A program made the translations under genes and the position numbers. Shown here piece after piece: positions 3,590-59,332 of a stretch of DNA of 64,000 nt (position 1 is its first letter; each line of letters starts with the position of its first letter). The stretch is from the NCBI GenBank assembly GCA_027489355.1, contig JAIXZY010000012.1, positions 124,001-188,000 of the forward strand. The letters are read 5' to 3'. This DNA is from Paracoccaceae bacterium. GTDB lineage: Bacteria; Pseudomonadota; Alphaproteobacteria; Rhodobacterales; Rhodobacteraceae. The notes below the pieces were generated by a model that was not told the DNA's origin, did not search any database, and saw nothing but the letters and a program-made list of their open reading frames with translations.

Positions 3590-3658
3590 CATTTTCTGTC
3601 CGCAAATATCCCCGCCGGAGGCCCGCCGAGCCGTTTTGCGTCCTTCACGCAAAACGGC
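3590..3658 (-). repeat. Dispersed hairpin-plus-GGATATTT element, copy 1
   Basis: Read on the minus strand, a perfect 12-bp stem (GCCGTTTTGCGT with its complement at 3630-3641/3647-3658, 5-nt loop) is followed 7 bp later by the conserved tail at 3590-3622: GCCTCCGGCGGGGATATTT, then GCGGACAGAAAATG. The tail differs from copy 9 at only one of 33 positions. It lies inside the sit operon between sitB and sitC, opposite to the direction of transcription, where the stem could also act on the sit mRNA. Confidence 0.8.
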
Positions 3659-3724
3659 GAGACAAAAGGCACGCGCCGCAAGGCGCTCCATTCGATCGCC
3701 GCCCCGACCCGCGCGCGGCCCGCC

Positions 3725-4555
3725 ATGCTTGAACCCTTCGCCTACAGCTACATGACCAACGCCATGTGGGTCTCGGCGCTCGTCGGCGGGGTCTGCGGGT
3801 TCCTCTCGGCCTACCTCATGCTCAAAGGCTGGTCCCTCATCGGCGACGCGCTCTCGCACTCCGTCGTCCCCGGAGTCGCCGGGGCCTACATCCTCGGCCT
3901 TCCCTTCGCCTTGGGGGCCTTCCTCTCCGGCGGCCTCGCCGCCGCCGCCATGCTGTTCCTGACCAACCGCACCGGCCTCAAGACCGATACGGTGATCGGC
4001 CTCATCTTCACCTCGTTCTTCGGCCTCGGCCTCTTCCTCATCTCGATCTACCCGACCTCCGTCTCGATCCAGACCATCACGATGGGCAACATCCTCGCCA
4101 TCTCGCCCGGCGACACGCTGCAACTCGTCCTGATCGGAGGTATCTCGGCCGCCGTGCTCCTTCTGCTCTGGAAGGACCTGATGGTGACCTTCTTCGACGA
4201 GGCCCATGCCCGCACCATCGGCTTGCGCCCCGACCTCTTGAAAGTGGTGTTCTTCACGCTCCTCTCCGCATCGACCGTTGCCGCCATGCAGACCGTGGGT
4301 GCCTTCCTCGTCGTCGCCATGGTCGTCACGCCCGGAGCGACCGCCTATCTCCTGACCGACCGCTTCCCCCGCCTCTTGACGCTGTCCGCCAGCATCGGGG
4401 CCGCCACCGGCTTCACCGGCGCCTACCTCAGCTACTTCCTCGACGGCGCGACCGGGGGTGTCATCGTGCTGCTTCAGACCGCGCTCTTCGCGCTGGCCTT
4501 CCTCTTTGCTCCGAAACACGGCCTTCTTGCCGCACGGCGCAGGGCGCGGGCATGA
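3725..4555 (+). CDS. sitC: Manganese/iron ABC transporter permease SitC
   Basis: This 276-residue ABC-3 family inner-membrane permease has about eight hydrophobic segments, and residues 27-50 hold the LMLKGWSLIGDALSHSVVPG block characteristic of ZnuB/SitC/MntB permeases. The stop overlaps the sitD start (ATGA), so the two permeases are translationally coupled and probably form a heterodimer. It follows sitB after 144 bp containing repeat copy 1. No clear Shine-Dalgarno sequence is visible before the ATG, consistent with weaker initiation after the hairpin. Confidence 0.88.
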   Translation: MLEPFAYSYMTNAMWVSALVGGVCGFLSAYLMLKGWSLIGDALSHSVVPGVAGAYILGLPFALGAFLSGGLAAAAMLFLTNRTGLKTDTVIGLIFTSFFGLGLFLISIYPTSVSIQTITMGNILAISPGDTLQLVLIGGISAAVLLLLWKDLMVTFFDEAHARTIGLRPDLLKVVFFTLLSASTVAAMQTVGAFLVVAMVVTPGATAYLLTDRFPRLLTLSASIGAATGFTGAYLSYFLDGATGGVIVLLQTALFALAFLFAPKHGLLAARRRARA

Positions 4556-5373
4556 TCGACGCGGCGCTCCAGCCCTTCCAGTTCCCCTTCATGCAGAACG
4601 CCTTCTGGATCGCGCTGATCGTCGCGCCCCCGACGGCGCTCTTGTCCTGTTTCCTGGTCCTGAAAGGCTGGGCGCTGATGGGCGATGCGGTCAGCCATGC
4701 CGTCCTGCCCGGCATCGTGCTGGCCTACATGGCCGGGCTACCGCTGCTGCTCGGCGCCTTCGTCGCGGGCCTCGGCTCGGCGCTGCTGACCGGCTGGCTC
4801 GCCGACAACAGTCGCATCAAGCGTGACACGGTGATGGGGGTCGTCTTCTCGGCCATGTTCGCGCTTGGCATCGTCCTCGTGACCGCCTTCCCAACCCAGA
4901 TCCACCTGGACCACATCCTCTTCGGCAACATGCTCGGCGTCGGGGGGCAGGACATTCTGACCGCCGCGCTGATCGCGGTGCCGGTGACGCTGATCCTGAT
5001 CCTCAAGTGGCGCGACCTGATGCTGCATGCCTTCGACCCCGCCCAGGCCCAGGTCTCGGGCCTGCCGGTCAGGCTGCTGCACTATGGCCTTCTCGCCATC
5101 CTCGCGCTGACCATCGTCGCCACGCTGTCCTCGGTCGGGCTGATCCTGGCCATCGGCCTCCTGATCGCGCCGGGGGCCATCGCCTTCCTGACCACCCGCA
5201 GCTTCGGTGCCATGCTCGTCACCGCCACCGCCGTCTGCCTTTTCGCGATGACGGCCGGGGTCTACGCCAGCTTCCACCTCGACAGCGCGCCCGCGCCGAC
5301 GATCATCCTGATCCTGACCGCGCTCTTCCTGCTGGCCTTCCTGCGCCGAGTGATCCTGACCCGCGCCGCCTGA
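4552..5373 (+). CDS. sitD: Manganese/iron ABC transporter permease SitD
   Basis: This second ABC-3 permease (273 residues) is homologous to SitC, with the block LVLKGWALMGDAVSHAVLPG near residues 33-52 and repeated hydrophobic segments to the C-terminus. The start ATG overlaps the sitC TGA by 4 bp. The longer open frame upstream in this register is a shadow of sitC. It completes the transporter; the operon appears to end here, since the next gene begins 64 bp later and is functionally unrelated. Confidence 0.88.
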   Translation: MIDAALQPFQFPFMQNAFWIALIVAPPTALLSCFLVLKGWALMGDAVSHAVLPGIVLAYMAGLPLLLGAFVAGLGSALLTGWLADNSRIKRDTVMGVVFSAMFALGIVLVTAFPTQIHLDHILFGNMLGVGGQDILTAALIAVPVTLILILKWRDLMLHAFDPAQAQVSGLPVRLLHYGLLAILALTIVATLSSVGLILAIGLLIAPGAIAFLTTRSFGAMLVTATAVCLFAMTAGVYASFHLDSAPAPTIILILTALFLLAFLRRVILTRAA

Positions 5374-5437
5374 TCCCCTTGCGGGACGCCGGGCCAGCCT
5401 CTACCCATTGCCCGACGCGTCCCCTGGAATACCCGCA

Positions 5438-7842: not shown

Positions 7843-7845
7843 CGG

Positions 7846-12612: not shown

Positions 12613-12704
12613 GGGGGCGCTTCGCCCCCCGCGAGCCTCAGGTTTCTTGTACCGGTGGCGAACCCTTCGGCTCACCCAGAGGATATTTTCAGACAGAAAA
12701 TGGG
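12613..12704 (+). repeat. Dispersed hairpin-plus-GGATATTT element, copy 2
   Basis: The stem GGGGGCG, loop CTT, CGCCCCC (12613-12629) is followed by about 50 bp and then the tail AGGATATTTTCAGACAGAAA (from 12680) plus ATGGGG. The tail overlaps the end of hutH: read on the minus strand it encodes the last residues and the TGA at 12689. The element lies between hutH and hutU in opposite orientation to both. Confidence 0.75.
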
Positions 12705-14230
12705 GTGAGCTCGGGCAGGGTGACGCCTGTGGCCTTCGACAGCGTGCCGTCGGCCACCAGTGCGGCGGCCTTGGCAAGATCGGGGGCGAGGTAGCGGTCT
12801 TCCTCCAGTGCATGGACCTCTGTCCGCAGCGCGCGGACGGCGGCCTGCAGGGGGGGCGAGGTGCGCAAGGGCGCGCGAAACTCCACGCCTTGCGCGGCGC
12901 ACATCGCCTCGACGCCAAGGATCACGTTCAGGTTCTGGACCATCCGCCGCAGGCGACGGGCACCGTGGGCGGCCATGCTGACATGGTCCTCCTGGTTCGC
13001 GCTTGTGGGGGTGCTGTCGATGACCGTCGGATGCGCCAGATGCTTGTTCTCGCTCATCAGCGCGGCCGTCGTCACCTCGGCGATCATCAGGCCAGAGTTG
13101 AGGCCGGGCTTCGGCGTCAGGAACGCCGGCAGGTCGAAGGACAGTGTCGGGTCCACCATCAGCGCGACCCGGCGCTGCGAGATGGCGCCGATTTCGGCCA
13201 CCGCCATCGCGATCATATCCGCAGCAAATCCAACGGGTTCCGCGTGGAAGTTGCCACCACTTACGATCTGGCCGTCCGACAGGACCAGCGGGTTGTCGGT
13301 CGCCGCGTTGGCCTCGATCTCCAGCGTCCGCGCGGCCATGCGCAACACGTCCATCGCCGCCCCGGTGACCTGCGGCTGGCAGCGGATGCAATAGGGGTCC
13401 TGCACCCGGCTGTCGCCCTCGCGGTGGCTTTCGCGGATTTCGCTTCCCGCCAGCAGCGCCCGCATCGTCGCGGCGGCCGCGATCTGGCCCGGTTGCCCGC
13501 GCAAAGTGTGGATTTCCGGCTCCAGCGGCGCTGTCGATCCCATAATGGCATCCGTGGAGAGCGCCGAGATCACCAACGCCTCGCGTGCGGCCTGCCAGGC
13601 CTGGAACAGCCCAGCCAGAGCGTAGGCCGTGGAAAACTGGGTGCCGTTGATCAGGGCCAGCCCTTCCTTCGGACCCAGCGTAATGGGGGAAAGACCTTTC
13701 AACGCAAGGGCTTCTGCACCGCTTTTTACCTGACCATCCACCGTGGCCTGTCCGTGGCCGATCATCACGGCCGTCATGTGGGCCAGCGGCGCGAGGTCGC
13801 CCGAGGCCCCGACCGACCCCTGGTCAGGGATCACCGGCGTGATGCCGTGGGCCAGCATGTCCTCGATCAGCGCCACCAGCTCGGGCCGGACCCCTGACGC
13901 ACCGCGGCCCAATGACACCAACTTCAACACCATCATCAGCCGCGCCACATCCTCGGGCATCGGCGCGCCGACGCCGCAGCAATGGCTTAGAATCAGGTTT
14001 TTCTGAAGGGTGGCAGTGTCTTCGGCGGCGATCTTTATGCTTGCAAGCTTGCCGAAGCCCGTGTTGACCCCATAGACCGCAACGCTGCCGTTGGCAGCCT
14101 CCGCGATGTGACCGGCTGCGCGCACGATGCCCGGACGGGCGCTCTCGTGCAGGCGCGCGGGGCGGCCCAGCCTGTATATACGTTCCAGCTGCGCAAGGCT
14201 GACCTGGCCGGGAACAAGGACTTCAGTCAA
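12689..14230 (-). CDS. hutH: Histidine ammonia-lyase HutH
   Basis: This 513-residue enzyme deaminates histidine to urocanate, the entry step of the pathway. The MIO prosthetic group forms from Ala-Ser-Gly in [15 protein letters not shown] (near residue 143), and the [10 protein letters not shown] and [11 protein letters not shown] blocks are typical. The start is TTG at 14230: it overlaps the hutI end by 8 bp, has GGAGG 5 bp upstream, and gives the family length, whereas the longer frame to 14380 runs through hutI. The last five codons and the stop lie within repeat copy 2, so the natural C-terminus may have been altered by it. Confidence 0.95.
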
Positions 14231-17505: not shown

Positions 17506-17533
17506 GTAGGGTGGGCGATATCGCCCACCCTAC
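17506..17533. terminator. 28-bp perfect palindrome between convergent hutC and lysR
   Basis: GTAGGGTGGGCGAT is followed immediately by its exact complement, giving 14-bp arms with no spacer. It starts 2 bp after the hutC stop and covers the stop codon of the convergent LysR gene. A hairpin of this strength could block transcription from both sides, though no T-run follows on either strand. A bidirectional terminator or a REP-like repeat are both possible. Confidence 0.55.
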
Positions 17534-18384
17534 CGGCCGGTGCGAAAATGTCGGGCGACCAGCTGGATCAGCTTGCGGTGCAAGGGCAGGGTCCGGTGAC
17601 GAATGTGGATCGCGGCATAGACCGGTTGCCGCAGGGCGGGGGCGTCCTCGACCGACAGGAAGCGGCCCCCGGCGATCAGCTCGTCGGCTGTCTTCTCCAG
17701 CACATAGCCCGAGCCCCCCATCGCCGTCAGAAGCGACACGACCGAACCCGACTGGCCGACCGAGACCGGCGAGGCCGCGAGGTCGGGGGTCAGCTGCCGA
17801 TGCATCTCCTCGAAGGCGGGGGAGAAATGGGCGAAGACGAAGCGATCCGGCCGGACTTCGGCCAGGCGCTGCGTGTCGGTCGAGATCATCCGGTAGATCA
17901 CGTCGCCGACGCTGTCGAAATGCAGGTCCGGGTGGGGTTTCGGACTGAACATCACCGCGAAGTCGAGGATGCCGGTCAGAAGGTCGGCGCACATCTGGTT
18001 GGAATAGTCCGGCTCGATGTAGAAGGCCGTCTCGGGAAGGCCTGCGCGGAACTCGGCCACCCAGTCGCCCAGGTAGACGGCGGCTAGGTCGTTCTGGATG
18101 CCCAGCCGCAGAAGCTGCTGCGCGCCCTGCGGGATCTGGATCCGCCGCCGCGCCTCGTTCCATTCGTGCCGCAGCGCGCGCGCGTGGGGCTCGAACCGCT
18201 TGCCCTCGGGCGTGAGGTCGGTTCCCGCCCGCGAGCGATCAAAGAGGCGCGAGCCGACCGCCTGTTCCAGCGCGGTGACGCGGGCCGAAACGGTCGACTG
18301 GGTGATCCGCAGCCGTTCCGCTGTCCGATGGAAGCTGCGCGTCTCCGCGAGGTCGAGGAAAGTGTCGAGAAGATCGATCTGCAT
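17530..18384 (-). CDS. LysR-family transcriptional regulator
   Basis: This 284-residue protein begins with a typical LysR HTH (LIDTFLDLAETRSFHRTAERL-type, shown as LLDTFLDLAETRSFHRTAE, recognition helix ITQSTVSARVTALEQ) followed by a periplasmic-binding-like effector domain. It is divergent from the FAD/GcvT, MttB-like gene run starting at 18563, across 178 bp holding repeat copy 3, and is the obvious candidate regulator of that run. The inducer is unknown. The stop lies within the 28-bp palindrome. Confidence 0.87.
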   Translation of the reverse strand: MQIDLLDTFLDLAETRSFHRTAERLRITQSTVSARVTALEQAVGSRLFDRSRAGTDLTPEGKRFEPHARALRHEWNEARRRIQIPQGAQQLLRLGIQNDLAAVYLGDWVAEFRAGLPETAFYIEPDYSNQMCADLLTGILDFAVMFSPKPHPDLHFDSVGDVIYRMISTDTQRLAEVRPDRFVFAHFSPAFEEMHRQLTPDLAASPVSVGQSGSVVSLLTAMGGSGYVLEKTADELIAGGRFLSVEDAPALRQPVYAAIHIRHRTLPLHRKLIQLVARHFRTGR

Positions 18385-18412: not shown

Positions 18413-18465
18413 CCGGGGGCGCTTCGCCCCCCGGAATCCCCCGAGGATATTTGCGGAAGAGAAAG
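18413..18465 (+). repeat. Dispersed hairpin-plus-GGATATTT element, copy 3
   Basis: The stem CCGGGGGCG, loop CTT, CGCCCCCCGG (18413-18434, one bulged C) is followed 10 bp later by the tail AGGATATTTGCGGAAGAGAA (from 18444) and AG. It lies in the divergent region between the LysR gene and the first FAD/GcvT gene. The stem core is the same as in copy 2. Confidence 0.75.
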
Positions 18466-18562: not shown

Positions 18563-20989
18563 ATGGCGGAATTTGCATCAGCTCGGGTGGTGATCATCGG
18601 GGGCGGGGCCGTCGGGGCCTCGGCGCTGTATCACCTGGCGAAGGCCGGGTGGACGGACGCGCTGCTTCTGGAGAAGAACGAGCTGACCGCCGGGTCGACC
18701 TGGCATGCGGCGGGGAACGTGCCGACGTTCTCGTCCTCGTGGTCGATCATGAACATGCAGCGTTATTCCGCCAGCCTCTACCGGGGTCTGGGCGAGGCGG
18801 TCGGCTATCCGATGAACTACCATGTGACCGGCTCGGTCCGCCTTGGGCATTCGAAGGAACGCTTGCAGGAGTTCAAGCGCGTCGTCGGCATGGGGCGCTA
18901 TCAGGGGATGGACCTGCAGATCCTTTCGCCCGAGGAGATCCGCGCGCGGTATCCCTTCGTCGAGACGCATGACCTGACCGGCGCGCTCTATGACCCCTAT
19001 GACGGCGACATCGACCCGGCGCAACTGACCCAGGCGCTGGCGACGGGCGCCCGGCAGATGGGTGCGCGGATCGAACGGTTCTGCCCGGTGACCGCCGCGC
19101 GCTGGACGGGGGCAGAGTGGGTGCTGTCGACCCCGAAGGGCGAGGTCCGCGCCGAATATGTGGTGAATGCGGGCGGGTATTATGCAGCCCAGGTCGGTGC
19201 GATGTTCGGCCGCCGGGTGCCGATGATGGTGATGAGCCACCAGTACCTGCTGTTCGACACCATCCCGGAACTGGAAGCCTGGACGAAGGAGGTCGGCCAC
19301 AAGCTGCCGCTCCTTCGGGACGTCGACTCGTCCTACTATCTCCGGCAAGAGAAGATGGGCTTCAACCTCGGCCCTTACGAGAACCCCTGCCGCGCGCATT
19401 GGGCGACGCCCGACGACCCGATGCCCGAGGATTTCAGCTTCCAGCTCTTCCCCGACGACCTGGAACGGATCGAGTGGCACATCAACGACGCGATGGCCCG
19501 CGTTCCGCTGCTGCAGCAGGCCGCGCTGACCAAGGTGATCAACGGGCCGATCCCCTATACGCCCGACGGCAACCCGCTCATCGGCCCGATGCCCGGCGTC
19601 CCCAATGCCTTCGAGGCCTGCGTCTTCACCTTCGGCATCTGCCAGGCGGGCGGCGCGGGCAAGGTGCTGGCCGAATGGGTGACGGAAGGCAGCACCGAAT
19701 GGGACATGTGGTCCTGCGACCCGCGCCGCTTCACCGGGTGGGAGGATCACGACTACCTCGTGCAGAAGGGGATGGAGGTCTACGGCCACGAATACGGGAT
19801 GCATTTCCCGATGGCCCGCTGGCCCGCCGCACCCGACCGCAAGCTTTCGCCGGTGCATGACAAGCTCAATGCGCTCGGCGCCCAGTTCGCGCCCTACAAC
19901 GGCTGGGAGCGGGCGGAATGGTTTGCCGCGCCGGGGGACGATATCTCGTGGGAGTCCACCCAGACCTGGGGCCGGGCGGGCCCGTGGGAACCCCGGATCA
20001 AGGCGGAATGCGAGGCCGTGCGCGATGGCGTGGGCGTGCTGGACCTCCCGGGCTTCACCCGCTTGCGGCTGGTTGGGCCGGGCGCTCGGGCGCATCTGGC
20101 CTCGCTCACCGCCTCGAAGCTGCCGCAGCCCGGACGGATGGGCCTGATCTACTTCGCCGACGACCGGGGTCGCATCGTGACCGAGATGACCTGCATTCCC
20201 GCCAGCGACGAGGATGTGGGAGTGATCACCGCCGCCGTCGCGCAAGCGCATGATGCGGACATCCTGCGCAAAGGACTGCCCGAGGGCGTGACGCTGGAGG
20301 ACTGGTCGGACAAGATCCACTGCTTCATCGTCACCGGCCCCAAGGCGCGGGACCTCTTGGCGGGGATGTCCGAGGCCGACCTGACGCGGCCCTGGCTCTC
20401 GGTCCAGTTCAGCGCGAAGGTGGCGGGCAGGGACGTGGCGCTGGTCCGGGTCTCCTTCGCCGGAGAGCTCGGCTGGGAAATCCACTGCGACCGCGCGGAT
20501 GCGCCCGCGATCTACGACGCGCTTCTGGCGGGCGGCGCCAAGCCCTTCGGCATGAAGGCCCTGAACAGCTTGCGCATCGAGAAGGGCTACCGCGCCTGGA
20601 AGGGCGATCTGTCCACCGACTATTCGCTGCTGGAAGGCGGGCTGGAGCGCTTTGTCGACTGGGGCCATGATTTCCCCGGCAAGGCGGCGTTGCAGGCCGA
20701 GAAACAGCGCGGCGTCAGGAAGCGGTTTGTTTCGCTGAAGATAGAGGCCGGCGACTGTGATGCGCCCTACATGTCGACCCTCTGGCACGGCGGACAGGTG
20801 GTCGGCGAGACGACCTCGGGTGCCTGGGGCTACCGGGTGGGTCATTCGATGGCGCTGGGGATGCTGCGGGCAGATCTTGCGGTGCCGGGGACCGATGTCG
20901 AGGTGGAAATCTTCGGCGACCGGGTGAAGGCGACGATTCTGCCCGACGGTCCGGCCTGGGACGCGAAGAACGAGCGCATCCGCGCATGA
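18563..20989 (+). CDS. FAD-dependent dehydrogenase with GcvT domains (dimethylglycine dehydrogenase-like), first paralogue
   Basis: This 808-residue fusion has an N-terminal FAD oxidoreductase (Rossmann VVIIGGGAVGASALYHLAKA, residues 8-27; STWHAAG with the His that carries FAD covalently in dimethylglycine dehydrogenase) and, from about residue 430, a GCV_T plus GCV_T_C pair that in relatives binds tetrahydrofolate and captures the released methyl as methylene-THF. The substrate is probably a secondary or tertiary N-methyl amine. ATG 18563 has GGGAGG 5 bp upstream. It leads a rightward gene run with the second paralogue 66 bp away. Confidence 0.82.
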   Translation: MAEFASARVVIIGGGAVGASALYHLAKAGWTDALLLEKNELTAGSTWHAAGNVPTFSSSWSIMNMQRYSASLYRGLGEAVGYPMNYHVTGSVRLGHSKERLQEFKRVVGMGRYQGMDLQILSPEEIRARYPFVETHDLTGALYDPYDGDIDPAQLTQALATGARQMGARIERFCPVTAARWTGAEWVLSTPKGEVRAEYVVNAGGYYAAQVGAMFGRRVPMMVMSHQYLLFDTIPELEAWTKEVGHKLPLLRDVDSSYYLRQEKMGFNLGPYENPCRAHWATPDDPMPEDFSFQLFPDDLERIEWHINDAMARVPLLQQAALTKVINGPIPYTPDGNPLIGPMPGVPNAFEACVFTFGICQAGGAGKVLAEWVTEGSTEWDMWSCDPRRFTGWEDHDYLVQKGMEVYGHEYGMHFPMARWPAAPDRKLSPVHDKLNALGAQFAPYNGWERAEWFAAPGDDISWESTQTWGRAGPWEPRIKAECEAVRDGVGVLDLPGFTRLRLVGPGARAHLASLTASKLPQPGRMGLIYFADDRGRIVTEMTCIPASDEDVGVITAAVAQAHDADILRKGLPEGVTLEDWSDKIHCFIVTGPKARDLLAGMSEADLTRPWLSVQFSAKVAGRDVALVRVSFAGELGWEIHCDRADAPAIYDALLAGGAKPFGMKALNSLRIEKGYRAWKGDLSTDYSLLEGGLERFVDWGHDFPGKAALQAEKQRGVRKRFVSLKIEAGDCDAPYMSTLWHGGQVVGETTSGAWGYRVGHSMALGMLRADLAVPGTDVEVEIFGDRVKATILPDGPAWDAKNERIRA

Positions 20990-21000: not shown

Positions 21001-21047
21001 CCGGGGGCCAGCCCCCGGACCCCCGGGATATTTCTGGACAGAAAATG
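21001..21047 (+). repeat. Dispersed hairpin-plus-GGATATTT element, copy 4
   Basis: The stem CCGGGGGC, loop CA, GCCCCCGG (21001-21018) is followed by ACCCCC and the tail GGATATTTCTGGACAGAAAA (from 21026) then TG. It fills most of the 65-bp gap between the two FAD/GcvT genes and reaches to 8 bp before the second start codon, in the same orientation as the genes. Confidence 0.8.
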
Positions 21048-23496: not shown

Positions 23497-25058
23497 CCGA
23501 CCTCTCCGACCTTCCCGGCGAGACCTGCGAACCCGCCCGCGCCCGTCGATCCGGCGGCCGTCAGGCCCGCGTTGCGCTGCGGGCCGCACCCCTGGCGGAC
23601 GATGTCAAACCCGTCCGCCCCGGGCTTCCGGGAGGCCAGTACAAGCCCCTGACCGAGGCGGGCGTCAGCCAGATCCACGCCGCCGCGCTGGACGCTCTGG
23701 AACAGATCGGCCTTAGCCAAGCCCCTGAATCGGGGCGCAGAATCCTGGCCGAGGCCGGGGCGATCCTGGGCGATGACGGCCGCATCCGCTTTCCCCGCGC
23801 CCTGGTCGAGGACATGCTGGCCATCGCCGCCCGTGACATCACGCTTTACGCCCGCGATCCCAGACACGACCTGCACCTGACCGGCACCAACGTGCACTAC
23901 GGCACGGCGGGCGCGGCGGTGCATATCGTCGATCCGATCACGCTGGAGTATCGCGATTCCACCGCGCAGGACCTGTACGATGCGGCGCGGCTGGTCGACA
24001 ACCTGGACAACATCCACTTCTACCAGCGCACGATGGTTTGTCGGGACGTGGCCGACAACAAGGAAATGGACCTCAACACGCTGTACGGCTGCCTTGCCGG
24101 GACGACGAAGCATGTCGGCACCAGCTTTTCGGACCCGTCGCATGTCGCTGACTGTTTCGAAATGCTCTACATGGTGGCGGGGTCCGAGGAGAAGTGGCTG
24201 GAGCGGCCCTTCGTCTCGAACTCCAACTGCTTCGTCGTCCCGCCGATGAAGTTCGCCGAAGAATCCTGCATCACGATGGAAGATTGCATCCGCAGGGGCA
24301 TGCCGATGCTGCTGCTGTCCGCCGGTCAGGCCGGTGCCACCGCGCCTGCGCCCATCGCGCTGACCATCGTGCAGGCCGTGGCCGAATGCCTGGCGGGCGT
24401 CGTCTATGTCAACGCGATCAAACCCGGTGCGCCGGCGATCTTCGGGACCTGGCCCTTTGTTTCCGACCTGAGAACAGGTGCCATGTCAGGTGGCAGCGCC
24501 GAACAGGCACTTCTGACGGCCGGTTGCGCCCAGATGCACCGCTTCTACGGCCTGCCTGGCGGCGCGGCCTCGGGGATCAGCGACTCGAAGCTTCCCGACA
24601 TGCAGGCGGGCTGGGAGCAGGGGATCACCAACGCGCTTGCGGGCCTTGCGGGCCTCAACATGTGCTACGAGGCGGTGGGGATGCATGCCTCGCTGCTTGG
24701 CTTCTGCCTGGAATCCCTCGTTCTCGGCGACGACCTTCTCGGCCAGGCCATGCGGCTGGTGCGCGGCATCGACGTGACGCCCGACAGCACGTCGATCGAC
24801 GCGATGAAGGACGTCTGCCTGGGCGGGCCGGGGCACTATCTGGGCTCGGATCAGACTTTGAAGCTGATGCAGACCGAATACATCTACCCCAACGTCGGCA
24901 ACCGGATGTCGCCGAAGGAGTGGAACGAGGCCGGCAAGCCGCTGCTCCTCGACACCGCCATTGCCCGGAAGAACGCGATCCTGGCCAAGGCCGGCTGCCG
25001 CGTGGACCCTGACGTCGACGCGGCAATCCGCAAGCGGTTCAACATCTACTTCAAGTAA
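23493..25058 (+). CDS. Trimethylamine methyltransferase (MttB) superfamily protein, non-pyrrolysine type
   Basis: This 521-residue protein belongs to the MttB (COG5598) superfamily: YKPLTEAGVSQIHAAALDAL near residue 49, GTNVHYGTAGAAVHIVDP near residue 130, and the C-terminal block GGPGHYLGSDQTLKLMQTEY. There is no in-frame amber codon, so it is not the pyrrolysine trimethylamine enzyme; related non-Pyl proteins include glycine-betaine and other quaternary-amine methyltransferases that pass the methyl to a corrinoid protein. No corrinoid protein or activase gene is present nearby. Translation is coupled to the preceding GcvT-fusion enzyme, suggesting consecutive demethylation steps. The frame extending upstream to 22962 is a shadow. 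Confidence 0.83.
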   Translation: MTDLSDLPGETCEPARARRSGGRQARVALRAAPLADDVKPVRPGLPGGQYKPLTEAGVSQIHAAALDALEQIGLSQAPESGRRILAEAGAILGDDGRIRFPRALVEDMLAIAARDITLYARDPRHDLHLTGTNVHYGTAGAAVHIVDPITLEYRDSTAQDLYDAARLVDNLDNIHFYQRTMVCRDVADNKEMDLNTLYGCLAGTTKHVGTSFSDPSHVADCFEMLYMVAGSEEKWLERPFVSNSNCFVVPPMKFAEESCITMEDCIRRGMPMLLLSAGQAGATAPAPIALTIVQAVAECLAGVVYVNAIKPGAPAIFGTWPFVSDLRTGAMSGGSAEQALLTAGCAQMHRFYGLPGGAASGISDSKLPDMQAGWEQGITNALAGLAGLNMCYEAVGMHASLLGFCLESLVLGDDLLGQAMRLVRGIDVTPDSTSIDAMKDVCLGGPGHYLGSDQTLKLMQTEYIYPNVGNRMSPKEWNEAGKPLLLDTAIARKNAILAKAGCRVDPDVDAAIRKRFNIYFK

Positions 25059-27194: not shown

Positions 27195-27245
27195 CCAAAT
27201 TTCTTGAGGAAGAAATTTGCCAAATTCCTTGCTTAAGGAATTTGG
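27195..27245. terminator. AT-rich double hairpin, copy 1
   Basis: Two stem-loops in tandem: AAATTTCTT, GAGG, AAGAAATTT (27197-27218) and CCAAATTCCTT, GCTT, AAGGAATTTGG (27220-27245). They lie between the convergent PLP-enzyme and SDR genes. The very AT-rich stems stand out from the GC-rich surroundings. A bidirectional terminator is likely. A second copy with similar stems is at 31962-32008. Confidence 0.65.
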
Positions 27246-27254
27246 GTCCCAGCG

Positions 27255-27938: not shown

Positions 27939-27972
27939 GCCTCCGGCGGGAGTATTTTTGAAAAGAGCAAAT
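27939..27972 (+). repeat. Dispersed GGATATTT element, copy 5 (tail with little stem)
   Basis: AGCCTCCGGCGGGAGTATTT (from 27938) is followed by TTGAAAAGAGCAAATG. It has an AGTATTT variant of the tail, like copy 8, and lacks a long stem beyond CCTCCGG/CGGGAG-type pairing. It lies between the SDR start and the DUF1801 stop, opposite to both genes. Confidence 0.6.
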
Positions 27973-27984: not shown

Positions 27985-28353
27985 TCAGGACTTGCGACCA
28001 GCACCCGCGGCGATCTCGGCCTGGCGGGCTTCGACGATCCGGCGCAGGAGGCTGTCGGGCAGCCGCCGGTCCGGGGTGAACAGGACGCCGGATTTCGAGG
28101 TCCTGAAGGGAGCGCAGTCGATCTGCGGGATGACGCTGCCGGAATGGGGGTAAAGACCGAGGTGACGGGAGAAAGCCGCATATCCTGCGACCATCTTGCC
28201 GGATGGCGGGGGCTGTCGGAAGCCGGGCATGGCGTAGGACATGACTTCCAGGTGGTCCGGGAGGAGGGTCTTCAGTCGCGCCCGGAGGTCGGTCAGGGCG
28301 GCCCGTTGATCCGGGGGCAGGGCGGCGATGTAGGCGTTGACCTCGTCGCTCAC
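27985..28353 (-). CDS. DUF1801 (YdhG-like) domain protein
   Basis: This 122-residue cytoplasmic protein has the DUF1801 pattern: VNAYIAALPPDQRAALTDLR at the N-terminus, then SYAMPGFRQPP, AAFSRHLGLYPHSG and TPDRRLPDSLLRRIVEARQ. The fold is related to frataxin-like iron chaperones, but function is not established. It starts with GTG overlapping the purF stop by 4 bp, so it is translated from the purF message. Confidence 0.8.
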   Translation of the reverse strand: MSDEVNAYIAALPPDQRAALTDLRARLKTLLPDHLEVMSYAMPGFRQPPPSGKMVAGYAAFSRHLGLYPHSGSVIPQIDCAPFRTSKSGVLFTPDRRLPDSLLRRIVEARQAEIAAGAGRKS

Positions 28354-32008: not shown

Positions 32009-32022
32009 GGGCTCTGCCTGGC

Positions 32023-32474: not shown

Positions 32475-32528
32475 CTGGAGGGTTTCACACCCTCCAGACC
32501 TCCCGTGGGATATTTGGAGAAGGGAAAG
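32475..32528 (+). repeat. Dispersed hairpin-plus-GGATATTT element, copy 6
   Basis: The stem CTGGAGGGT, loop TTCAC, ACCCTCCAG (32475-32497) is followed by ACCTCCCGTG and the tail GGATATTTGGAGAAGGGAAA (from 32507) then G. The TTCAC loop is identical to that of copy 8, whose arms are CCGGGGGGT/ACCCCCCGG: arm bases differ but stay paired. It lies between the PqiA-like gene and mlaF, opposite to both. Confidence 0.8.
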
Positions 32529-32531: not shown

Positions 32532-33278
32532 TCAGCGGACGGATTCGATCGGGCCGTCGGCGCGGCCGTGGATGAACTGCTGCACATAGGGGTCGTCGGT
32601 GGCGTCCAGTTCACTTACCGGGCCGGTCCAGCGGATCACCCCGCCGTGCAGCATGGCGACGGTATCGGCGATGGCGCGGACCGAGGACATGTCGTGGGTG
32701 ATGGTCATCGCGGTCGCGCCCATCTCGACCACGATCTCGCGGATCAGGGCGTTGATGACGCCGGACATGATCGGGTCGAGGCCCGTCGTGGGCTCGTCGA
32801 AGAAGATGATCTCGGGCTCGGCGGCGATGGCCCGGGCGAGGCCCACGCGTTTCTGCATCCCGCCAGAGAGTTCGGCCGGGAAGAGGTCGGCGGTCGCGGG
32901 CTTCAGTCCGACGCGGCGCAGCTTCTCGACCGCGACCGCGCGCGCGGCCTCCTTGGGCAGGGCCTTCGGGCCGCGGACAAGCCGGAAGGCCACGTTCTCC
33001 CACACGCGGAGCGAGTCGAAGAGCGCGCCGCCCTGGAACAGCATCCCGAAACGCGACAGGAAGGCGTCGCGGTCGGCTTTCGTCACATCCTGGCCGTCCA
33101 GCGTGATCGTGCCGCTGTCGGGCCGGACCAGGCCAAGGATGCACTTCAACAGGACGGACTTCCCCGTCCCCGATCCGCCGATGATGACCATCGACGACCC
33201 CGATGCGATGTTCAGGTTCACGCCCTGCAGGACGCGGTTGTCGCCGAACCGCTTATGGACCTGGTGCAGTTCGATCAT
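32532..33278 (-). CDS. mlaF: Phospholipid ABC transporter ATP-binding protein MlaF
   Basis: This 248-residue ATPase has Walker A GGSGTGKS (residues 35-42), LSGGMQKRVGLARA signature and IIFFDEPTTGLDPI Walker B with the long MlaF/TtgA-type GLDPIMSGVI. It drives lipid exchange between membranes with permease MlaE. The ATG overlaps the mlaE stop. The usual next genes (MCE-domain mlaD, mlaC, mlaB) are not seen in this window. Confidence 0.88.
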   Translation of the reverse strand: MIELHQVHKRFGDNRVLQGVNLNIASGSSMVIIGGSGTGKSVLLKCILGLVRPDSGTITLDGQDVTKADRDAFLSRFGMLFQGGALFDSLRVWENVAFRLVRGPKALPKEAARAVAVEKLRRVGLKPATADLFPAELSGGMQKRVGLARAIAAEPEIIFFDEPTTGLDPIMSGVINALIREIVVEMGATAMTITHDMSSVRAIADTVAMLHGGVIRWTGPVSELDATDDPYVQQFIHGRADGPIESVR

Positions 33279-43302: not shown

Positions 43303-43327
43303 CCCGCCCGCCCTTTCATAATGGCCC

Positions 43328-43399
43328 AAATATCCCCGCCGGAGGCATCCGACCTCTCCACCCAGCACCACGCCCGAAGGCGTAGCACGCAGGTCGGAT
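43328..43399 (-). repeat. Dispersed hairpin-plus-GGATATTT element, copy 7
   Basis: On the minus strand a large stem (outer arms ATCCGACCT/AGGTCGGAT at 43391-43399 and 43347-43355; inner arm around a TTCG loop with wobble pairs) leads directly into GCCTCCGGCGGGGATATTT (43346 down to 43328). The second half of the tail is missing. It lies between gcdH and the glycosyltransferase in their direction, with its outer arm touching the gcdH stop, so it may end gcdH transcription. Confidence 0.72.
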
Positions 43400-44619
43400 C
43401 AGAAGAAAGCCTGGATGCCGGTAATCGCGCGGCCCAGGATCAGCGCATGGACATCATGCGTGCCCTCGTAGGTGTTCACCGTCTCCAGGTTCACCATGTG
43501 GCGGATCACCTGGAAATCCTCTGAAATCCCGTTGCCGCCATGCATGTCGCGCGCCCAGCGGGCGGCTTCCAGCGCCTTGCCGCAGTTGTTGCGCTTGACG
43601 ATGCTGATCATCTCCGGCGCGGCATTGGCCTCGTCCAGCAGACGGCCCACGCGCAACGATGCCTGCAACCCCAGCGAAATCTCGGTCAGCATGTTTGCCA
43701 GCTTCAGCTGGAACAGCTGCGTCCCCGCGATGGGCTTGCCGAACTGCTTGCGGTCCAGCCCGTACTGCCGCGCCGCGTGCAGGCAGAACTCGGCCGAGCC
43801 CATGACGCCCCACGAGATGCCATACCGCGCCCGGTTCAGGCAGCCGAACGGCCCCTTCAGACCCTCGACATGCGGCAGAAGCGCGTCCTCGCCGACTTCC
43901 ACGTCCTTCATCACGATCTCGCCCGTGATCGACGCCCGCAGCGACAGCTTGCCGCCCACCTTCGGGGCCGAAAGCCCCTTCATGCCCTTTTCCAGCACGA
44001 AGCCCTTGATCTTGCCGCCATGCGCCTCGGATTTGGCCCAGACCACGAAGACATCCGCGATAGGCGCGTTGGAAATCCACATCTTCGATCCGTTCAGCAC
44101 ATAGCCGTTCGCGGTCTTCTTCGCCGTGGTCTTCATCCCGGCCGGGTCCGACCCCGCGTCAGGCTCGGTCAGGCCGAAGCACCCGATGAACTCGCCCGAG
44201 GCGAGCTTCGGCAGATACTTCATCCGCTGCGCTTCGGTCCCATAGGCATAGATCGGATACATCACCAGCGACGACTGCACCGACATCATGCTGCGATAGC
44301 CCGAATCCACCCGCTCGACCTCGCGCGCCACCAGCCCGTAGGCCACATAGGACGCGCCCAGCCCGCCGTAGTCCTCGGGGACGGTCACGCCCAGCAGCCC
44401 CATCTCGCCCATCTCGCGGAAGATCGACGGATCGGTCGCTTCCTCGCGGAAGGCCGCGATCACGCGCGGCTGCAGCTTTTCCTGCGCATAGGCCCGCGCC
44501 GCGTCGCGCAGCATCCGCTCTTCTTCGGTCAACTGGTCGTTCAGCCGGAACGGGTCTTCCCAGTCGAAGCGTCCCAGGTCGGGTGCGTCCTTGGCTTTCA
44601 GTTTCGGTGCGTCAAGCAT
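43399..44619 (-). CDS. gcdH: Glutaryl-CoA dehydrogenase GcdH (acyl-CoA dehydrogenase family)
   Basis: This 406-residue FAD enzyme oxidises and decarboxylates glutaryl-CoA to crotonyl-CoA in lysine/tryptophan/glutarate breakdown. [11 protein letters not shown] binds flavin, and the catalytic Glu sits in [20 protein letters not shown] at the C-terminus, typical of GcdH rather than other acyl-CoA dehydrogenases. The N-terminal [19 protein letters not shown] also matches. A LysR gene diverges from it. Confidence 0.93.
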
Positions 44620-46147: not shown

Positions 46148-47053
46148 GTGACCGCACTCCCCACCAGCATCGACGCCGTCGAAACCCTCCTCGCGACCCA
46201 AGGCTACGTCGCCTCCCGGGCCCTTGCCACCGTCGTCTTCCTTTCCCTCAAACTCGGCCGGCCCCTGTTCCTGGAAGGCGAGGCCGGCACCGGCAAGACC
46301 GAGATCGCCAAGACCCTCGCCACCGCGCTCGGCCGCCGCCTGATCCGACTGCAATGCTACGAAGGCCTCGACGCCGCCTCCGCCGTCGCCGAGTGGAACT
46401 TCGCCGCCCAGATGATCGCCATCCGCACCGCTGAAGGCGCCACCGACCGCGACGCTCTGCAGACGGAACTCTTCACCGAGGACTACCTCATTGAACGCCC
46501 GCTCCTCGCCGCCATGCGCCCGCAACCCGGCGGCGCGCCCGTCCTTCTCATCGACGAACTCGACCGCACCGACGAACCGTTCGAAGCCTTCCTCCTCGAA
46601 GCCCTCTCCGACTTCCAGGTCACCATCCCCGAGCTTGGCACCATCAAGGCCCCCGAACCCCCCATCGTCATCCTCACCTCGAACCGCACACGCGAGGTGC
46701 ACGACGCCCTGAAGCGCCGCTGCCTCTACCACTGGGTCGACTACCCCAGCTTCGACCGCGAGCTCGACATCCTCCACGCCCGCGCGCCCGAGGCGCAGGA
46801 AACCCTCTCCCGCGAAATCGTCGCCTTCGTCCAGAAACTCCGCCGCGAGGACCTCTTCAAACGCCCCGGCGTCGCTGAAACCATCGACTGGGCCAAATGC
46901 CTCCTCGCCCTCGACGTCATCGCCCTTTCCCCGGAGGTCATCTCCGACACCCTCGGCGCGATCCTGAAGTACCAGGACGACATCCAGAAACTGCAAGGCT
47001 CCGAGGCCAAACGCCTCCTCGACGAGGTCAAGCGCGAGCTCGTCCCCGCATGA
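46148..47053 (+). CDS. MoxR/CoxD-type AAA+ ATPase
   Basis: This 301-residue AAA+ protein has Walker A GEAGTGKTEIAK (residues 43-54), Walker B VLLIDELDRTDEPFEAFLLE and sensor/arginine-finger block TSNRTREVHDALKRRCLYHW. CoxD-like MoxR ATPases act with VWA-domain partners as chaperones for metal-centre insertion, in carbon-monoxide dehydrogenase maturing the Cu-S-Mo site. GTG 46148 has GGAGG 5 bp upstream; the open frame to 45746 lacks such support. The VWA partner begins 66 bp downstream with repeat copy 8 between. Confidence 0.87.
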   Translation: MTALPTSIDAVETLLATQGYVASRALATVVFLSLKLGRPLFLEGEAGTGKTEIAKTLATALGRRLIRLQCYEGLDAASAVAEWNFAAQMIAIRTAEGATDRDALQTELFTEDYLIERPLLAAMRPQPGGAPVLLIDELDRTDEPFEAFLLEALSDFQVTIPELGTIKAPEPPIVILTSNRTREVHDALKRRCLYHWVDYPSFDRELDILHARAPEAQETLSREIVAFVQKLRREDLFKRPGVAETIDWAKCLLALDVIALSPEVISDTLGAILKYQDDIQKLQGSEAKRLLDEVKRELVPA

Positions 47054-47056
47054 TCC

Positions 47057-47109
47057 TTGCTCTTTTCACAAATACTCCACGGGGGGCCGGGGGGTGTGAA
47101 ACCCCCCGG
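47057..47109 (-). repeat. Dispersed hairpin-plus-GGATATTT element, copy 8
   Basis: On the minus strand the stem CCGGGGGGT, loop TTCAC, ACCCCCCGG (47109-47087) is followed by CCCCCCGTGG and AGTATTTGTGAAAAGAGCAA then G at 47057. It fills the gap between the MoxR-type and VWA genes, opposite to both. Loop and variant AGTATTT tail link it to copies 6 and 5. Confidence 0.78.
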
Positions 47110-48518: not shown

Positions 48519-50927
48519 ATGAGAAAGCTTCTGGTTTCCACAACGGCCCTGTCGGTGGCGATCAGCCCCCTGGGCACCATGCCCGGCTTTGCCCAGGTGC
48601 TGAACGAGGATGGCTCGGTCACGGGGCCGGATGGCGCGGTGCTCTGCGTGCCGACGGCCGATACGGCCTGCGACCTCGAGGCGATCATCGCCAAGATCGA
48701 GGCCGATGCCGCCGCCGCAGCAGCCGCCGAAGCCGAAGCCGCTGCCACCAAGGCTGCGGAAGACGCGGCCGCCGCCGAGGCTGCCGCGCAGGCCGAGGCT
48801 GACGCAAAAGCGCAGGCGGACGCCGAGGCTGCCGCCGCCGCCGAGGCCGCCGCCGCCGCCGAGGCCGACGCCCAGGCGCAGGCCCAGGCCGAGGCTGACG
48901 CCGCCGCTGCCGCCGCCGCCGCCCAGGCGGAAGCCGAAGCCCAGGCCCAGGCAGAAGCCGAAGCCGCAGCCGCCAAGGCCGCCGAGGAACAGGCCGCCGC
49001 CGAAGCCGCCGCCCAGGCTGCGGCCGAGGCCGAAGCCGCAGCGCAGGCTGCCGAGGAAGCCGCCGCTGCCGAGGCCGCTGCCGGTCAGCAAGCCACCCCG
49101 GCCGAGGAACCGGCCGTCGAAGAAGCCGCCCCGGCTGAAGAACCCGTGGTGGATGAGGCCACCCCGGCCGAGGAACCGGCCGTCGAAGAAGCCGCCCCGG
49201 CTGAAGAACCCGTGGTGGATGAGGCCGCCCCGGCCGAGGAACCGGCCGTCGAAGAAGCTGCCCCGGTAGAAGAGCCCGTTGTAGACGAGGCCGCTCCCGC
49301 CGAGGAAGTTGCCCCGGCTGAAGAGCCCGCGGTGGACGAAGCCGCCCCCGCCGAGGAACCTGCCGTCGAGGCAGCGCCTGCCGAGGAACCCGCCGTCGAA
49401 GACGTCGCACCTGCCGAAGAACCGGCAGTCGAACCCGCGCCGGCGGACGCAACGGTCGCCGAAGAGCCTGCCGCCGAAGCACCCGCTGCCGAGGAACCGG
49501 TGGCGGAAGAACCCGCCGCGACCGAGGAGCCTGCCGCCGACGCCGACGCCTCCGTGGACGCGTCGGTTGCCCCGGACAGCGGCGCCGCCGTCGATCCGGC
49601 TGCCGCCGCAGCGGCACTGGCGGCTGCAGAGGCCGAACTCAACATCACCGAAGGTGGTGAAATCGTCGATGCGGCCGAAGGCCTTGTCGTCGCCGAACCC
49701 GATCCGGCCACCGAAGTCGCTCCGGTGGAAGCGCCGCAGGTCACCGAGACCGAGGTGGAAAGCCTGACGAACCTCCTGACCGCCGATCCGACCGCCATCG
49801 ACCCGACGGCGCTTGACGCGGCGAAACTGGTGGGAACAGCCCCGGCGGAAAACGGTGCTGTCGTGCCCGCGGCCGACCCCGATCAGGTTGTCGCCGAAGT
49901 GACGGAAACCATTACCGAGGACACCTCGCGCAGCTCGGCCGAGGAATTTGCCGCCGCCCCGCGTGCCCTTGGCGATGGCAAGAAGAGCGGTCTGTCGGAC
50001 CTTGAAAAGGCCGGCCTCCTGGTCCTTGGTGCCCTCGCCGTCGGCGCGATCATCAAGAACAACCGCGAGGCCGCCGCGACCAACACCGCCGTCTCGACGA
50101 TGGGCGATGCCCGTGTCGTGTCGAACACCGGCGACCGCGTCATCGTGCTTGAACCCGACGGGACCTACCGCGTGCTCAAGGACGACGACACCGTGATCCG
50201 TCGCCCCGGCTCGACCGTCCGGACCGAGACCTTCCGCGACGGCTCGACCCGGACCATCGTGGAACGCGGCGATGGCACCCAGGTCGTGACCATCCGTGAC
50301 GCCACCGGTCGCGTGCTGCGCCGCGCCACCTACGACGACATGGGCCGCGAGATTGTCCTGATCGACGACCTTGCCGAAGAGGAAGTCGTTGTCGTCAGCG
50401 ACCTGCCGAAGCCGAAGCGCCGCATCGTGATCTCGTCCAAGGACGAAGACGCGGCCCTGAAGCGCGAGCTGGCCGCCCTGGAAGCCGAAAAAGCCGGTCG
50501 CAAGTTCTCGCTCCGCCAGATCCGCGAGATCCCCGAGGTCCGCGCCCTGGCCGCGACGATCGACGTGGAACCGGTGACCTTCGCTTCGGGCTCTGCCGCG
50601 ATCCCCGCGGAAGAGGCGCGCGACCTTGCCGATCTCGGCCGCGTCATGCAGCAGCTCCTGGACGAAAACCCGCGCGAGGTCTTCCTGATCGAAGGCCACA
50701 CCGACGCGACCGGCAAGGCGGCGATGAACCTCGCCCTCTCCGACCGCCGGGCGGAATCGGTGGCGCTCGCCCTGACCGAGTACTTCGACATCCCGCCGGA
50801 GAACATGGTCGTCCAGGGCTACGGCGAGACCGAGTTGCTGATCGACACCCAGGCGAGCGAATCCCGCAACCGCCGGGTCGAGGTCCGGGTGATCACGCCG
50901 CTCCTGCGCACCGCCGACCGCGGCTAA
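48519..50927 (+). CDS. OmpA-family protein with Ala/Glu and Pro-Ala-Glu-Glu repeat regions
   Basis: This 802-residue protein begins with a Sec-type leader ([19 protein letters not shown]) ending near FAQ. Residues about 55-190 are an Ala/Glu coil, 192-330 a [10 protein letters not shown]-type repeat (three near-identical 66-nt units at DNA level), followed near residue 495 by a hydrophobic [14 protein letters not shown] segment, and residues 680-800 form an OmpA peptidoglycan-binding domain ([26 protein letters not shown]). It is probably anchored in the envelope and ties it to the cell wall, with the acidic repeat as a spacer. No sequence-based function beyond this. A strong terminator follows. 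Confidence 0.82.
49092..49289 (+). repeat. Three tandem 66-nt coding repeats in the OmpA-family gene
   Basis: Units begin at 49092, 49158 and 49224, each encoding a 22-residue block of the form A[21 protein letters not shown]. The first two are nearly identical in DNA, the third has drifted; shorter 11-residue relatives continue to about 49480. Such a region could change length by slippage. Confidence 0.8.
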
Positions 50928-54576: not shown

Positions 54577-54579
54577 GGG

Positions 54580-58314: not shown

Positions 58315-58317
58315 GCG

Positions 58318-58623: not shown

Positions 58624-58702
58624 GGCGATGTTCCTGGATTTTCATTGTCGAATATAGGACATTTTCCCGTCCCGGGGCCATAGACCCTTGCAGATAAGGA
58701 TG

Positions 58703-58739
58703 TGTGTTCCGATACTGCGGACAATGCGAACACATGTTC
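58703..58739. promoter_or_regulatory. Inverted repeats in the cys operon/Lrp divergent promoter region
   Basis: TGTGTTC at 58703-58709 faces GAACACA at 58728-58734, and the latter overlaps a tighter palindrome GAACA, CA, TGTTC at 58728-58739. The site lies in the 138-bp gap between the DUF2849 gene and the Lrp-type regulator, closer to the latter, and may be its binding site. Confidence 0.5.
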
Positions 58740-58761
58740 CGCCGGAAGGGGAGTTTCAGGA

Positions 58762-59223
58762 ATGACCGCCGCCTTGGACGATCTGGACCGGAAAATCCTG
58801 TCGGAACTGCAGGGCGATGCCGAGCAGTCGCTGGACGAGATCGCCCGCAAGGTGGGGTCGTCCAAGACCCCGGTCTGGAACCGCATCCGCCGGATGCGCG
58901 AGCAGGGGGTCATCACCCGGACCACGGCGATCCTGGACCCCGAGGCGCTTGGGTTGGAAGCCTGCTTCTTCGTGCTGATCCGCACGTCCGAGCATGAGGC
59001 GGAGTGGCAGCGCAAGTTCCTGAAGGCCCTGCGGGAACGGCCCGAGGTGCTGGAGGCGCACCGGCTGGCGGGGGACATCGACTATATCCTGAAGGTGCGG
59101 GTGAAGAATGCGCGGGCCTATGACACCTTCTACCAGGCGCTGATCTCTGAGGTGCGGATCTACAACGTCACCGCGCTGCTGAGCATGGAAGAGATCAAGT
59201 CGACGACCGTCCTGCCGCTGTGA
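58762..59223 (+). CDS. Lrp/AsnC-family transcriptional regulator
   Basis: This 153-residue protein has an N-terminal HTH (LDEIARKVGSSKTPVWNRIR, residues 22-41) and a C-terminal RAM ligand-binding domain (VLEAHRLAGDIDYILKVRVK). It is divergent from the sulfate/sulfite operon and likely controls it in response to a sulfur amino acid. ATG 58762 is used; the frame upstream to 58702 is probably leader. Confidence in the target is moderate. Confidence 0.87.
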   Translation: MTAALDDLDRKILSELQGDAEQSLDEIARKVGSSKTPVWNRIRRMREQGVITRTTAILDPEALGLEACFFVLIRTSEHEAEWQRKFLKALRERPEVLEAHRLAGDIDYILKVRVKNARAYDTFYQALISEVRIYNVTALLSMEEIKSTTVLPL

Positions 59224-59274
59224 CGGGCGGTTTTCAGAAGGAGCGCTGACGCGCAAGGCTTTTGTCTCGTCGTC

Positions 59275-59332
59275 GGGGCTTCGCCCTCCTCCTCGGGATG
59301 CCTCCGGCGGGGATATTTTCGGACAGAAAATG
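59275..59332 (+). repeat. Dispersed hairpin-plus-GGATATTT element, copy 9
   Basis: A short stem GGGGC, loop TTC, GCCCT (59275-59287) precedes the full tail GCCTCCGGCGGGGATATTT and TCGGACAGAAAATG (59300-59332). The tail matches copy 1 at 32 of 33 positions. It lies between the convergent Lrp-type gene and cytochrome P450 gene, ending 8 bp from the latter's stop. Confidence 0.8.

What the first reader, a model, noticed from the sequence alone, without database searches (positions are those of the whole stretch)
3590..59332. Nine-copy dispersed intergenic element: variable stem plus conserved GGATATTT tail
A sequence built from a stem-loop and the tail GCCTCCGGCGGGGATATTT, 2-4 bases, GGACAGAAAATG (or variants) occurs at 3590-3658 (-), 12613-12704 (+), 18413-18465 (+), 21001-21047 (+), 27939-27972 (+), 32475-32528 (+), 43328-43399 (-), 47057-47109 (-) and 59275-59332 (+). 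Copies 1 and 9 share 32 of 33 tail bases although 56 kb apart. All lie between genes, in both orientations relative to transcription, within operons as well as at ends. About one copy per 7 kb is a high density and suggests a mobile or selected non-coding element rather than chance. It could be a REP-like family moved by a transposase elsewhere, an RNA processing signal, or a protein-binding site.
Basis: seen in the sequence. Interest (0 to 1): 0.78.

Follow-up and report, generated by a model that had tools for sequence, protein, structure and literature searches.

The report
Gene-end DNA motif with genome-specific words
A short non-coding motif repeated at the ends of genes in one family of bacteria keeps a constant core but carries a word of about eleven letters that often differs from genome to genome, as if an unknown partner that reads it changes over time.

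Summary
All nine copies are present, and the family is genome-wide: 44 core+word matches in 406 intergenic gaps of a 720-kb sample against none in 100 shuffles. The exact core is in 89 of 149 Rhodobacteraceae genomes and, with one mismatch allowed, in 1 of 140 other alphaproteobacteria. Anatomy: GC-rich head or covarying hairpin, core GGATATTT or GAGTATTT, 2-4 free bases, then a word of about 11 letters. Copies sit near stop codons in either orientation, rarely between divergent genes; in another genus (G085) they occupy 21 of 42 convergent gaps sampled. Within the genus position and orientation persist (32 of 39 orthologous sites), but the word is replaced in place, and genomes favour their own words (54 of 54 readable copies in G085). 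Placement and pairing resemble REP elements, but no REP-type transposase was found (0 of 12 carriers tested), no GTAG/CGTC tag was seen, Rfam has no match, and few copies look like intrinsic terminators. Best reading: a selected, strand-neutral gene-end boundary site bound as DNA by fast-changing proteins. The site class is well supported; protein and mechanism are inferred. Some genomes mix four or five words.

The parts
3590..3667 (-). Copy 1, long form: TTTTGTCTCG (3667-3658), hairpin, head GCCTCCGGCGG (3622-3612), core GGATATTT (3611-3604), word GGACAGAAAATG (3601-3590); word side 9 nt after the stop of the + gene 2729-3580 (ABC ATPase)
   Evidence: its T-containing module is also the tail of a terminator-like site at 3686-3673 (-)
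12613..12704 (+). Copy 2: hairpin head, core 12681-12688, word AGACAGAAAATG 12691-12702; overlaps the stop of the - gene 12689-14230 (aromatic amino acid lyase)
   Evidence: orthologous site filled in 5 of 5 congeners
18413..18465 (+). Copy 3: hairpin head, core 18445-18452, word GGAAGAGAAAG; lies between divergent genes (17530-18384 - and 18587-20989 +), an exception
   Evidence: filled in 4 of 5 congeners
21001..21047 (+). Copy 4: hairpin CCGGGGGCCAGCCCCCGG plus third arm, core 21026-21033, word GGACAGAAAATG 21036-21047; after the stop of 18587-20989 (+), sense
   Evidence: coincides with a terminator-like site at 21014-21027
27939..27972 (+). Copy 5: head GCCTCCGGCGG, core GAGTATTT 27950-27957, word GAAAAGAGCAAA; word side after the stop of 27985-28353 (-)
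32475..32528 (+). Copy 6: hairpin CTGGAGGG-TTTCACA-CCCTCCAG, third arm ACCTCCCGTG, core 32508-32515, word AGAAGGGAAAG; word side 3 nt from the stop of 32532-33278 (-)
   Evidence: the hairpin is identical in the four congeners that hold the element; abuts a terminator-like site at 32542-32529 (-)
43313..43399 (-). Copy 7: upstream hairpin, head GCCTCCGGCGG (43346-43336), core 43335-43328, word GCCATTATGAAAG (43325-43313); between an acyl-CoA dehydrogenase gene (43399-44619 -) and a glycosyltransferase gene
47056..47109 (-). Copy 8: hairpin CCGGGGGG-TTTCACA-CCCCCCGG plus third arm, core GAGTATTT 47077-47070, word GAAAAGAGCAAG (47067-47056); word side a few nt from the stop of 46148-47053 (+)
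59260..59332 (+). Copy 9, long form: TTTTGTCTCG (59260-59269), hairpin, head 59300-59310, core 59311-59318, word GGACAGAAAATG 59321-59332; convergent gap between 58762-59223 (+) and 59341-60516 (-)

Best explanation
It is a REP-like, chromosomal, non-coding element of Rhodobacteraceae, without a REP-type transposase in the genomes tested, kept by selection at the ends of transcribed genes. SHOWN: bipartite anatomy (GC-rich head or hairpin, core G[GA][AG]TATTT, spacer of 2-4, word of about 11 nt); placement near stop codons; avoidance of divergent gaps; strand neutrality in tandem gaps; conservation of site and orientation inside the genus; replacement of the word in place with within-genome likeness. 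INFERRED: the site works as double-stranded DNA. A sequence-specific protein (or several paralogues, one per word class) binds core plus word and makes a boundary at the gene end: it stops or slows RNA polymerase running on from either side, and may help relieve supercoils between convergent genes. The hairpin head would help pausing or be a cruciform. The word follows the binder's changing specificity, so it changes at many sites of a genome while the sites stay.
For: Family-wide repeat beyond chance. Placement: 44 of 47 copies in 720 kb face at least one stop codon, 3 lie in divergent gaps (3 of 46 placed copies against 100 of 406 gaps, p=0.005). In G085 convergent gaps hold it in 21 of 42, tandem 21 of 150, divergent 3 of 61 (stretches were chosen where copies were known). 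Orientation in tandem gaps is 30 tail-first to 28 head-first in own plus G085 (p=0.90), as expected for DNA and not for one-strand RNA. Conservation: 32 of 39 orthologous anchors in five congeners carry it, each with a copy in the same orientation; at copy 7, 17 of the 20 fetched loci (own included; the best-matching of 34 genomes with a match, so biased upward), 15 with the exact 19-mer. Word changes in place: between own and G169 (90% identity over the locus) the copy-7 word differs at three letters (CCATT to CAAAG) with its outer flank unchanged. Words by genome: G085 54 of 54 readable copies AACAAAAGAA in 459 kb, one further copy cut by a stretch end; in the GGA class G031 14 of 14, G149 14 of 15, G172 7 of 7 (copies with the CTCCGGCGGG head only). 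Genome labels shuffled inside loci reach the observed within-genome likeness in 6 of 2000 (4.33 against 4.75); the nearest same-genome word is closer than the orthologous word in 122 of 158 comparisons, equal in 16, farther in 20 (this takes the nearest of several against one, so it is biased). Heads often stay or compensate at orthologous sites while words change, which speaks against gene conversion of the whole element. In all of G085 the word with a non-T five bases before it occurs once, in a decayed element, so a reader RNA with full complementarity is unlikely (a copy with T there would be missed). Hairpin covariation: 5 of 8 pairs changed on both sides, 0 of 500 shuffles.
Against: No binder was identified and no binding or transcription data exist here. 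Own genome shows no convergent excess (8 of 51 against 30 of 244, p=0.50). Own and G163 mix four or five words; for the GGA class in seven Tabrizicola genomes the within/between difference is small (4.10 against 4.36, 3 of 300 shuffles). In one search the mean within-genome distance (4.08) is larger than the mean orthologue distance (3.72); only the shuffle and nearest-neighbour tests favour concerted change. Copy 3 is in a divergent gap and is conserved there (4 of 5). The element also lies inside operon-like runs (terminase/portal spacer; edd/eda-like pair), where a strong roadblock would be costly. Covarying hairpins also fit an RNA role. Head types also interchange at some orthologous sites (copies 2 and 9).
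Confidence: 0.42

Rival explanations
1. RNA-level 3'-end element: a weak or protein-assisted terminator, or a 3' hairpin that blocks exonucleases, the word being single-stranded RNA read by an RNA-binding protein.
Against: Strand neutral in tandem gaps (30:28). Of 31 terminator-like sites in the 60 kb scanned one coincides with an element and two abut one (copies 1 and 6); totals are not clearly above shuffles (7 against 9.0, 10 against 11.1, 14 against 10.6). RNA fold z-scores of the nine copies run from -2.95 to +1.18, mostly weak. Hairpins on the word side of 53 G085 copies are only slightly above shuffles (0.21 against 0.10).
Confidence: 0.27
2. A slowly mobile REP-like parasite that lands beside stop codons because that is harmless; sharing of words reflects spread of sub-families.
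For: REP-like placement (compare PMC3733652); exact-core copy number 0 to 163 between genomes of the family; inverted pairs with matching words and spacers (L078, L149); presence and orientation differ between genera at the terminase/portal spacer (element seen by eye in 5 of 26 readable spacers, 2 sense and 3 antisense).
Against: Site and orientation conserved in 32 of 39 orthologues; words replaced without moving the flanks; no Y1 transposase in 12 of 12 carriers. Other transposase families were not tested.
Confidence: 0.22
3. A DNA uptake sequence with dialects, as in Neisseriaceae.
For: Genome-specific words and inverted pairs are shared with DUS dialects (PMC3630211, passages).
Against: The words are almost confined to gaps: AAAAGAGCA 17 intergenic, 0 coding, GACAGAAAA 7 and 2; one occurrence of the word by the non-element pattern in G085. 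Intragenic DUS positions are common (PMC3630211), and DUS are much denser (recalled).
Confidence: 0.03

Closest known systems
REP / BIME elements (GTAG- and CGTC-tagged superfamilies; PMC3733652)
   Same: 20-40 bp unit, extragenic, near stop codons, between tandem and convergent genes, sometimes paired in opposite orientation, palindrome plus unpaired end
   Different: No GTAG or CGTC tag seen; the unpaired part is a core plus an 11-nt word that differs by genome; hairpin and plain head interchange at some sites; no RAYT found. A find in the main text of PMC3733652 for Rhodobacter, Paracoccus, Roseobacter, Ruegeria, Silicibacter and the one-word spelling alphaproteobacteria gave no occurrence, though the text says CGTC REPs occur in all alphaproteobacterial orders.
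DNA uptake sequence dialects of Neisseriaceae (PMC3630211)
   Same: Short word constant within a genome and different between relatives; inverted pairs
   Different: Almost absent from coding DNA; tied to a conserved core and a head; far rarer (density of DUS recalled)
Intrinsic transcription terminators
   Same: GC hairpin, T-containing ATATTT, gene ends, convergent gaps in G085
   Different: No U-tract directly after the large hairpin; few copies score as terminators on either strand; both orientations about equally used

Membership tests
REP (GTAG/CGTC superfamilies) | Unpaired GTAG or CGTC (TGTC, CCTC) tag beside a palindrome (CGTC families: 8-9 bp stem) | tested here: not met
   No constant GTAG or CGTC at the base of the stem, judged by eye in the copies. 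CCTC occurs in the class-I head but is paired with GGGG in a 4-bp stem (fold). A narrow pattern test in the window gave 0. No systematic REP scan was run.
REP (GTAG/CGTC superfamilies) | Located between tandem and convergent ORFs, close to upstream stop codons | tested here: met
REP/REPIN with RAYT | RAYT (Y1_Tnp, PF01797) encoded in the genome | tested here: not met
   0 of 12 carrier genomes; 2 of 8 genomes without the exact core had one
Intrinsic terminator | Stable hairpin followed within 0-2 nt by a T-rich tract | tested here: not met
   One of 9 copies coincides with such a site, two abut one (window 1-60000); word-side hairpin weak in G085. Not met for the class, met for copy 4.
DNA uptake sequence | Word frequent in coding as well as intergenic DNA | tested here: not met
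DNA uptake sequence | Enhances transformation | not testable with these tools
Any Rfam 15 family | Covariance model match at gathering score | tested here: not met
   No element matched in the window or in 11 further loci; weaker matches were not searched

The most novel reading that the evidence does not exclude
Rhodobacteraceae mark gene ends with strand-neutral DNA 'address words' read by an unknown, fast-evolving protein system. Two or more word classes (GGATATTT- and GAGTATTT-type) change independently: G149 shares its commonest GGA word with G172 but its commonest GAG word with G170.
Probability: 0.28. Interest if true: 0.85.

Novelty: new variant of a known kind. Interest (0 to 1): 0.6.

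Why it matters
REP-like repeats are common, but here orthologous sites are stable while their recognition word changes along with other sites of the genome. That points to a trans-acting reader and makes the old question of what extragenic repeats at gene ends are for directly testable: swap one word, or one reader, between two species. If the boundary reading is right it would be a new way for bacteria to separate neighbouring transcription units.

Tried and rejected
First pattern for the genome search was badly made and found one match; redone. First gene caller picked antisense shadow genes; retrained on codon-position G+C.

RAYT mobilisation rejected for PF01797. Base-pairing RNA reader or RNA template with the full word made unlikely for G085 (the pattern needs a non-T five bases before the word). 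Uptake sequence rejected. Gene conversion of whole elements disfavoured because unusual heads persist (the CTGGAGGG hairpin at 32508 is kept in all four congeners that hold the element). The idea of a terminator at the end of a gene-transfer-agent (GTA) operon was dropped: the site is between a terminase-like gene and a portal gene, inside the cluster. That identification rests on a C-terminal motif (recalled), on a TIGR01630 match below its cut-off in one of two terminase candidates tested, on TIGR01537 portal matches in both following genes tested, and on contig sizes (11 of 42 viral-collection contigs are 13.7-14.8 kb). Of 47 copies in those contigs 26 follow such a gene by a fixed pattern (two near-variants more by eye); duplicates are included and the contigs were chosen for having the core. 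Pairing of TTTTGTCTCG with the word (fold of copy 1) rejected as general because the module stays constant while words vary. Phages: no match; plasmids: six short matches; both queries carried own word only.

Rows left out: the distance test used eight genomes; the 88 G085 and 10 G146 rows were not put in, G133 and G088 rows were not listed by the tool, and 38 of 40 own rows were listed. The covariation count used 19 of the 26 TTTCACA-type heads plus one variant. The tail list was made from words seen.

Literature: exact-letter search for six core strings gave one unrelated paper; listings only. PMC6238624 passages; PMC3733652 abstract, outline, sections 6 and 15 and a term search; PMC3630211 passages. 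I found no description of this element in those searches; most subscription journals and supplements are not covered.

Full report
OBSERVATION. The nine copies exist as described. In reader orientation the anatomy is: head, core, short spacer, word. Heads are GCCTCCGGCGG or a hairpin followed by a third C-rich arm (for example CCGGGGG-TTTCACA-CCCCCGG-ACCCCCGTG), with rarer variants. The core is GGATATTT or GAGTATTT. The word is about 11 nt (own genome: GGACAGAAAATG, GCCAGTATGAAAG, GCAAAGATGAAAG, GGAAGGGAAAG with the GGA core, GAAAAGAGCAA with the GAG core). A long form begins with TTTTGTCTCG; 10 of 10 such modules in 720 kb lead into a core. Whole genome: 76 matches to one fixed pattern, control 0. 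In the 720-kb sample 47 copies carry a recognised word, which would extrapolate to about 275 per genome.

RANGE. The exact 18-mer CCTCCGGCGGGGATATTT occurs in 89 of 149 genomes of the family, 54 of 73 genera, and 163 times in G085; the 17-mer with up to one mismatch in 1 of 140 alphaproteobacteria outside the family. The genus is Tabrizicola by inference: a contig of the congener G163 has the exact length of a T. aquatica contig. Rfam has no match to the elements at gathering score.

PLACEMENT. Of 47 copies in own genome, 22 are tail-first and 13 head-first in tandem gaps, 8 convergent, 3 divergent, 1 at an edge; one of the 13 (copy 7) overlaps a called gene start. In G085 (459 kb, 55 copies, 2 at stretch edges) 27 are convergent, 15 head-first, 8 tail-first, 3 divergent. 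Per gap: G085 21 of 42 convergent, 21 of 150 tandem, 3 of 61 divergent; own 8 of 51, 30 of 244, 3 of 98. Copies are often within about 25 nt of a stop on the word side, with a long tail of larger distances. Gene calls are from a codon-usage caller written here, not a curated annotation.

EVOLUTION. In a syntenic block of five congeners (80-84% mean nucleotide identity of orthologous genes) 32 of 39 orthologous anchors hold the element, each with a copy in the same orientation. At copy 7, 17 of 20 fetched loci (own included) keep it and 15 have the exact 19-mer; these were the best of 34 genomes with a match, and genomes matching only over the gene were mostly not fetched. The core class differs in 14 of 79 orthologous pairs. 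Head types interchange at some sites (copies 2 and 9). Words: see Best explanation; G149 and G172 share the commonest GGA-class word, G149 and G170 the commonest GAG-class word, so the classes change independently. Results against a clean dialect: own and G163 hold four or five words, and mean within-genome distance (4.08) exceeds mean orthologue distance (3.72). Between genera a GTA-like terminase/portal spacer shows turnover: of 30 genomes (18 chosen without and 12 with the exact core) 26 spacers were readable over 130 nt and 5 held an element recognisable by eye, 2 sense (G023, G087) and 3 antisense (G006, G024, G088), some with variant cores.

STRUCTURE. In 20 aligned TTTCACA-type heads (18 distinct; 19 of the 26 plus one; orthologues are among them), 91% of cells pair, 5 of 8 pairs change on both sides, and 0 of 500 shuffles reach this. 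In the examples seen where the arm is not pure C, the third arm mirrors the 3' arm of the hairpin (GAGGGG/CCCCTC/CTCCCC; GGAGGG/CCCTCC/CCTCCC); this is unexplained and compatible with a triplex or a G-quadruplex on the other strand (recalled chemistry, not tested).

MECHANISM. Strand neutrality, in-place word change and near-absence of the word elsewhere argue for a double-stranded site read by protein; convergent enrichment in G085 and stop-codon adjacency argue for a job at transcript ends. The reader protein, the effect on transcription and the cause of the word changes are inferred. An RNA 3'-end role and slow REP-like mobility remain live rivals.

Noticed in passing
window 24576-24675 (+): Rfam PYLIS_3 match (42.9 bits, gathering 38) inside an uninterrupted 521-aa MTTB-family gene (PF06253, 23493-25058); with no in-frame stop it is likely homology of the coding sequence, not pyrrolysine insertion.
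   Followed up: partly
720-kb sample of own genome: Other intergenic repeat words: GTAGGGTGGGCGAT, palindrome TCCACCGTGGACAA, and AAGGATTTTG/CAAAATCCTT-type words with variants such as AAGAAATTTG and AAGGAATTTG (related repeats near window 27204-27246 and 31969-32036).
   Followed up: no
L101:1958-2140, L122:269-459, L147:4152-4338: In Tabrizicola the gap beside genes whose starts look like edd and eda (named from recall) holds an inverted pair of elements around a conserved stretch CTTTCACACTGGACGGTCATCGGCGTCCCCGCCTGTACCGT (or near variants), without Rfam match.
   Followed up: partly
GTA-like terminase/portal spacer, L292, L299, L302, L304, L306: Where the element is missing, several genera carry another palindrome, CACCGCACGGTG-like, in the same spacer.
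   Followed up: no
L232:4809, L002:1675, window 32508: Third C-rich arm is the mirror image of the hairpin's 3' arm; possible triplex or G-quadruplex.
   Followed up: partly
L082, L149 (MAG JAPUEK contigs): Compact inverted forms: two heads and cores in opposite orientation close together.
   Followed up: no
window 48519-50927 (+): OmpA-family protein whose gene holds a long repetitive stretch rich in Ala/Glu-type codons.
   Followed up: no
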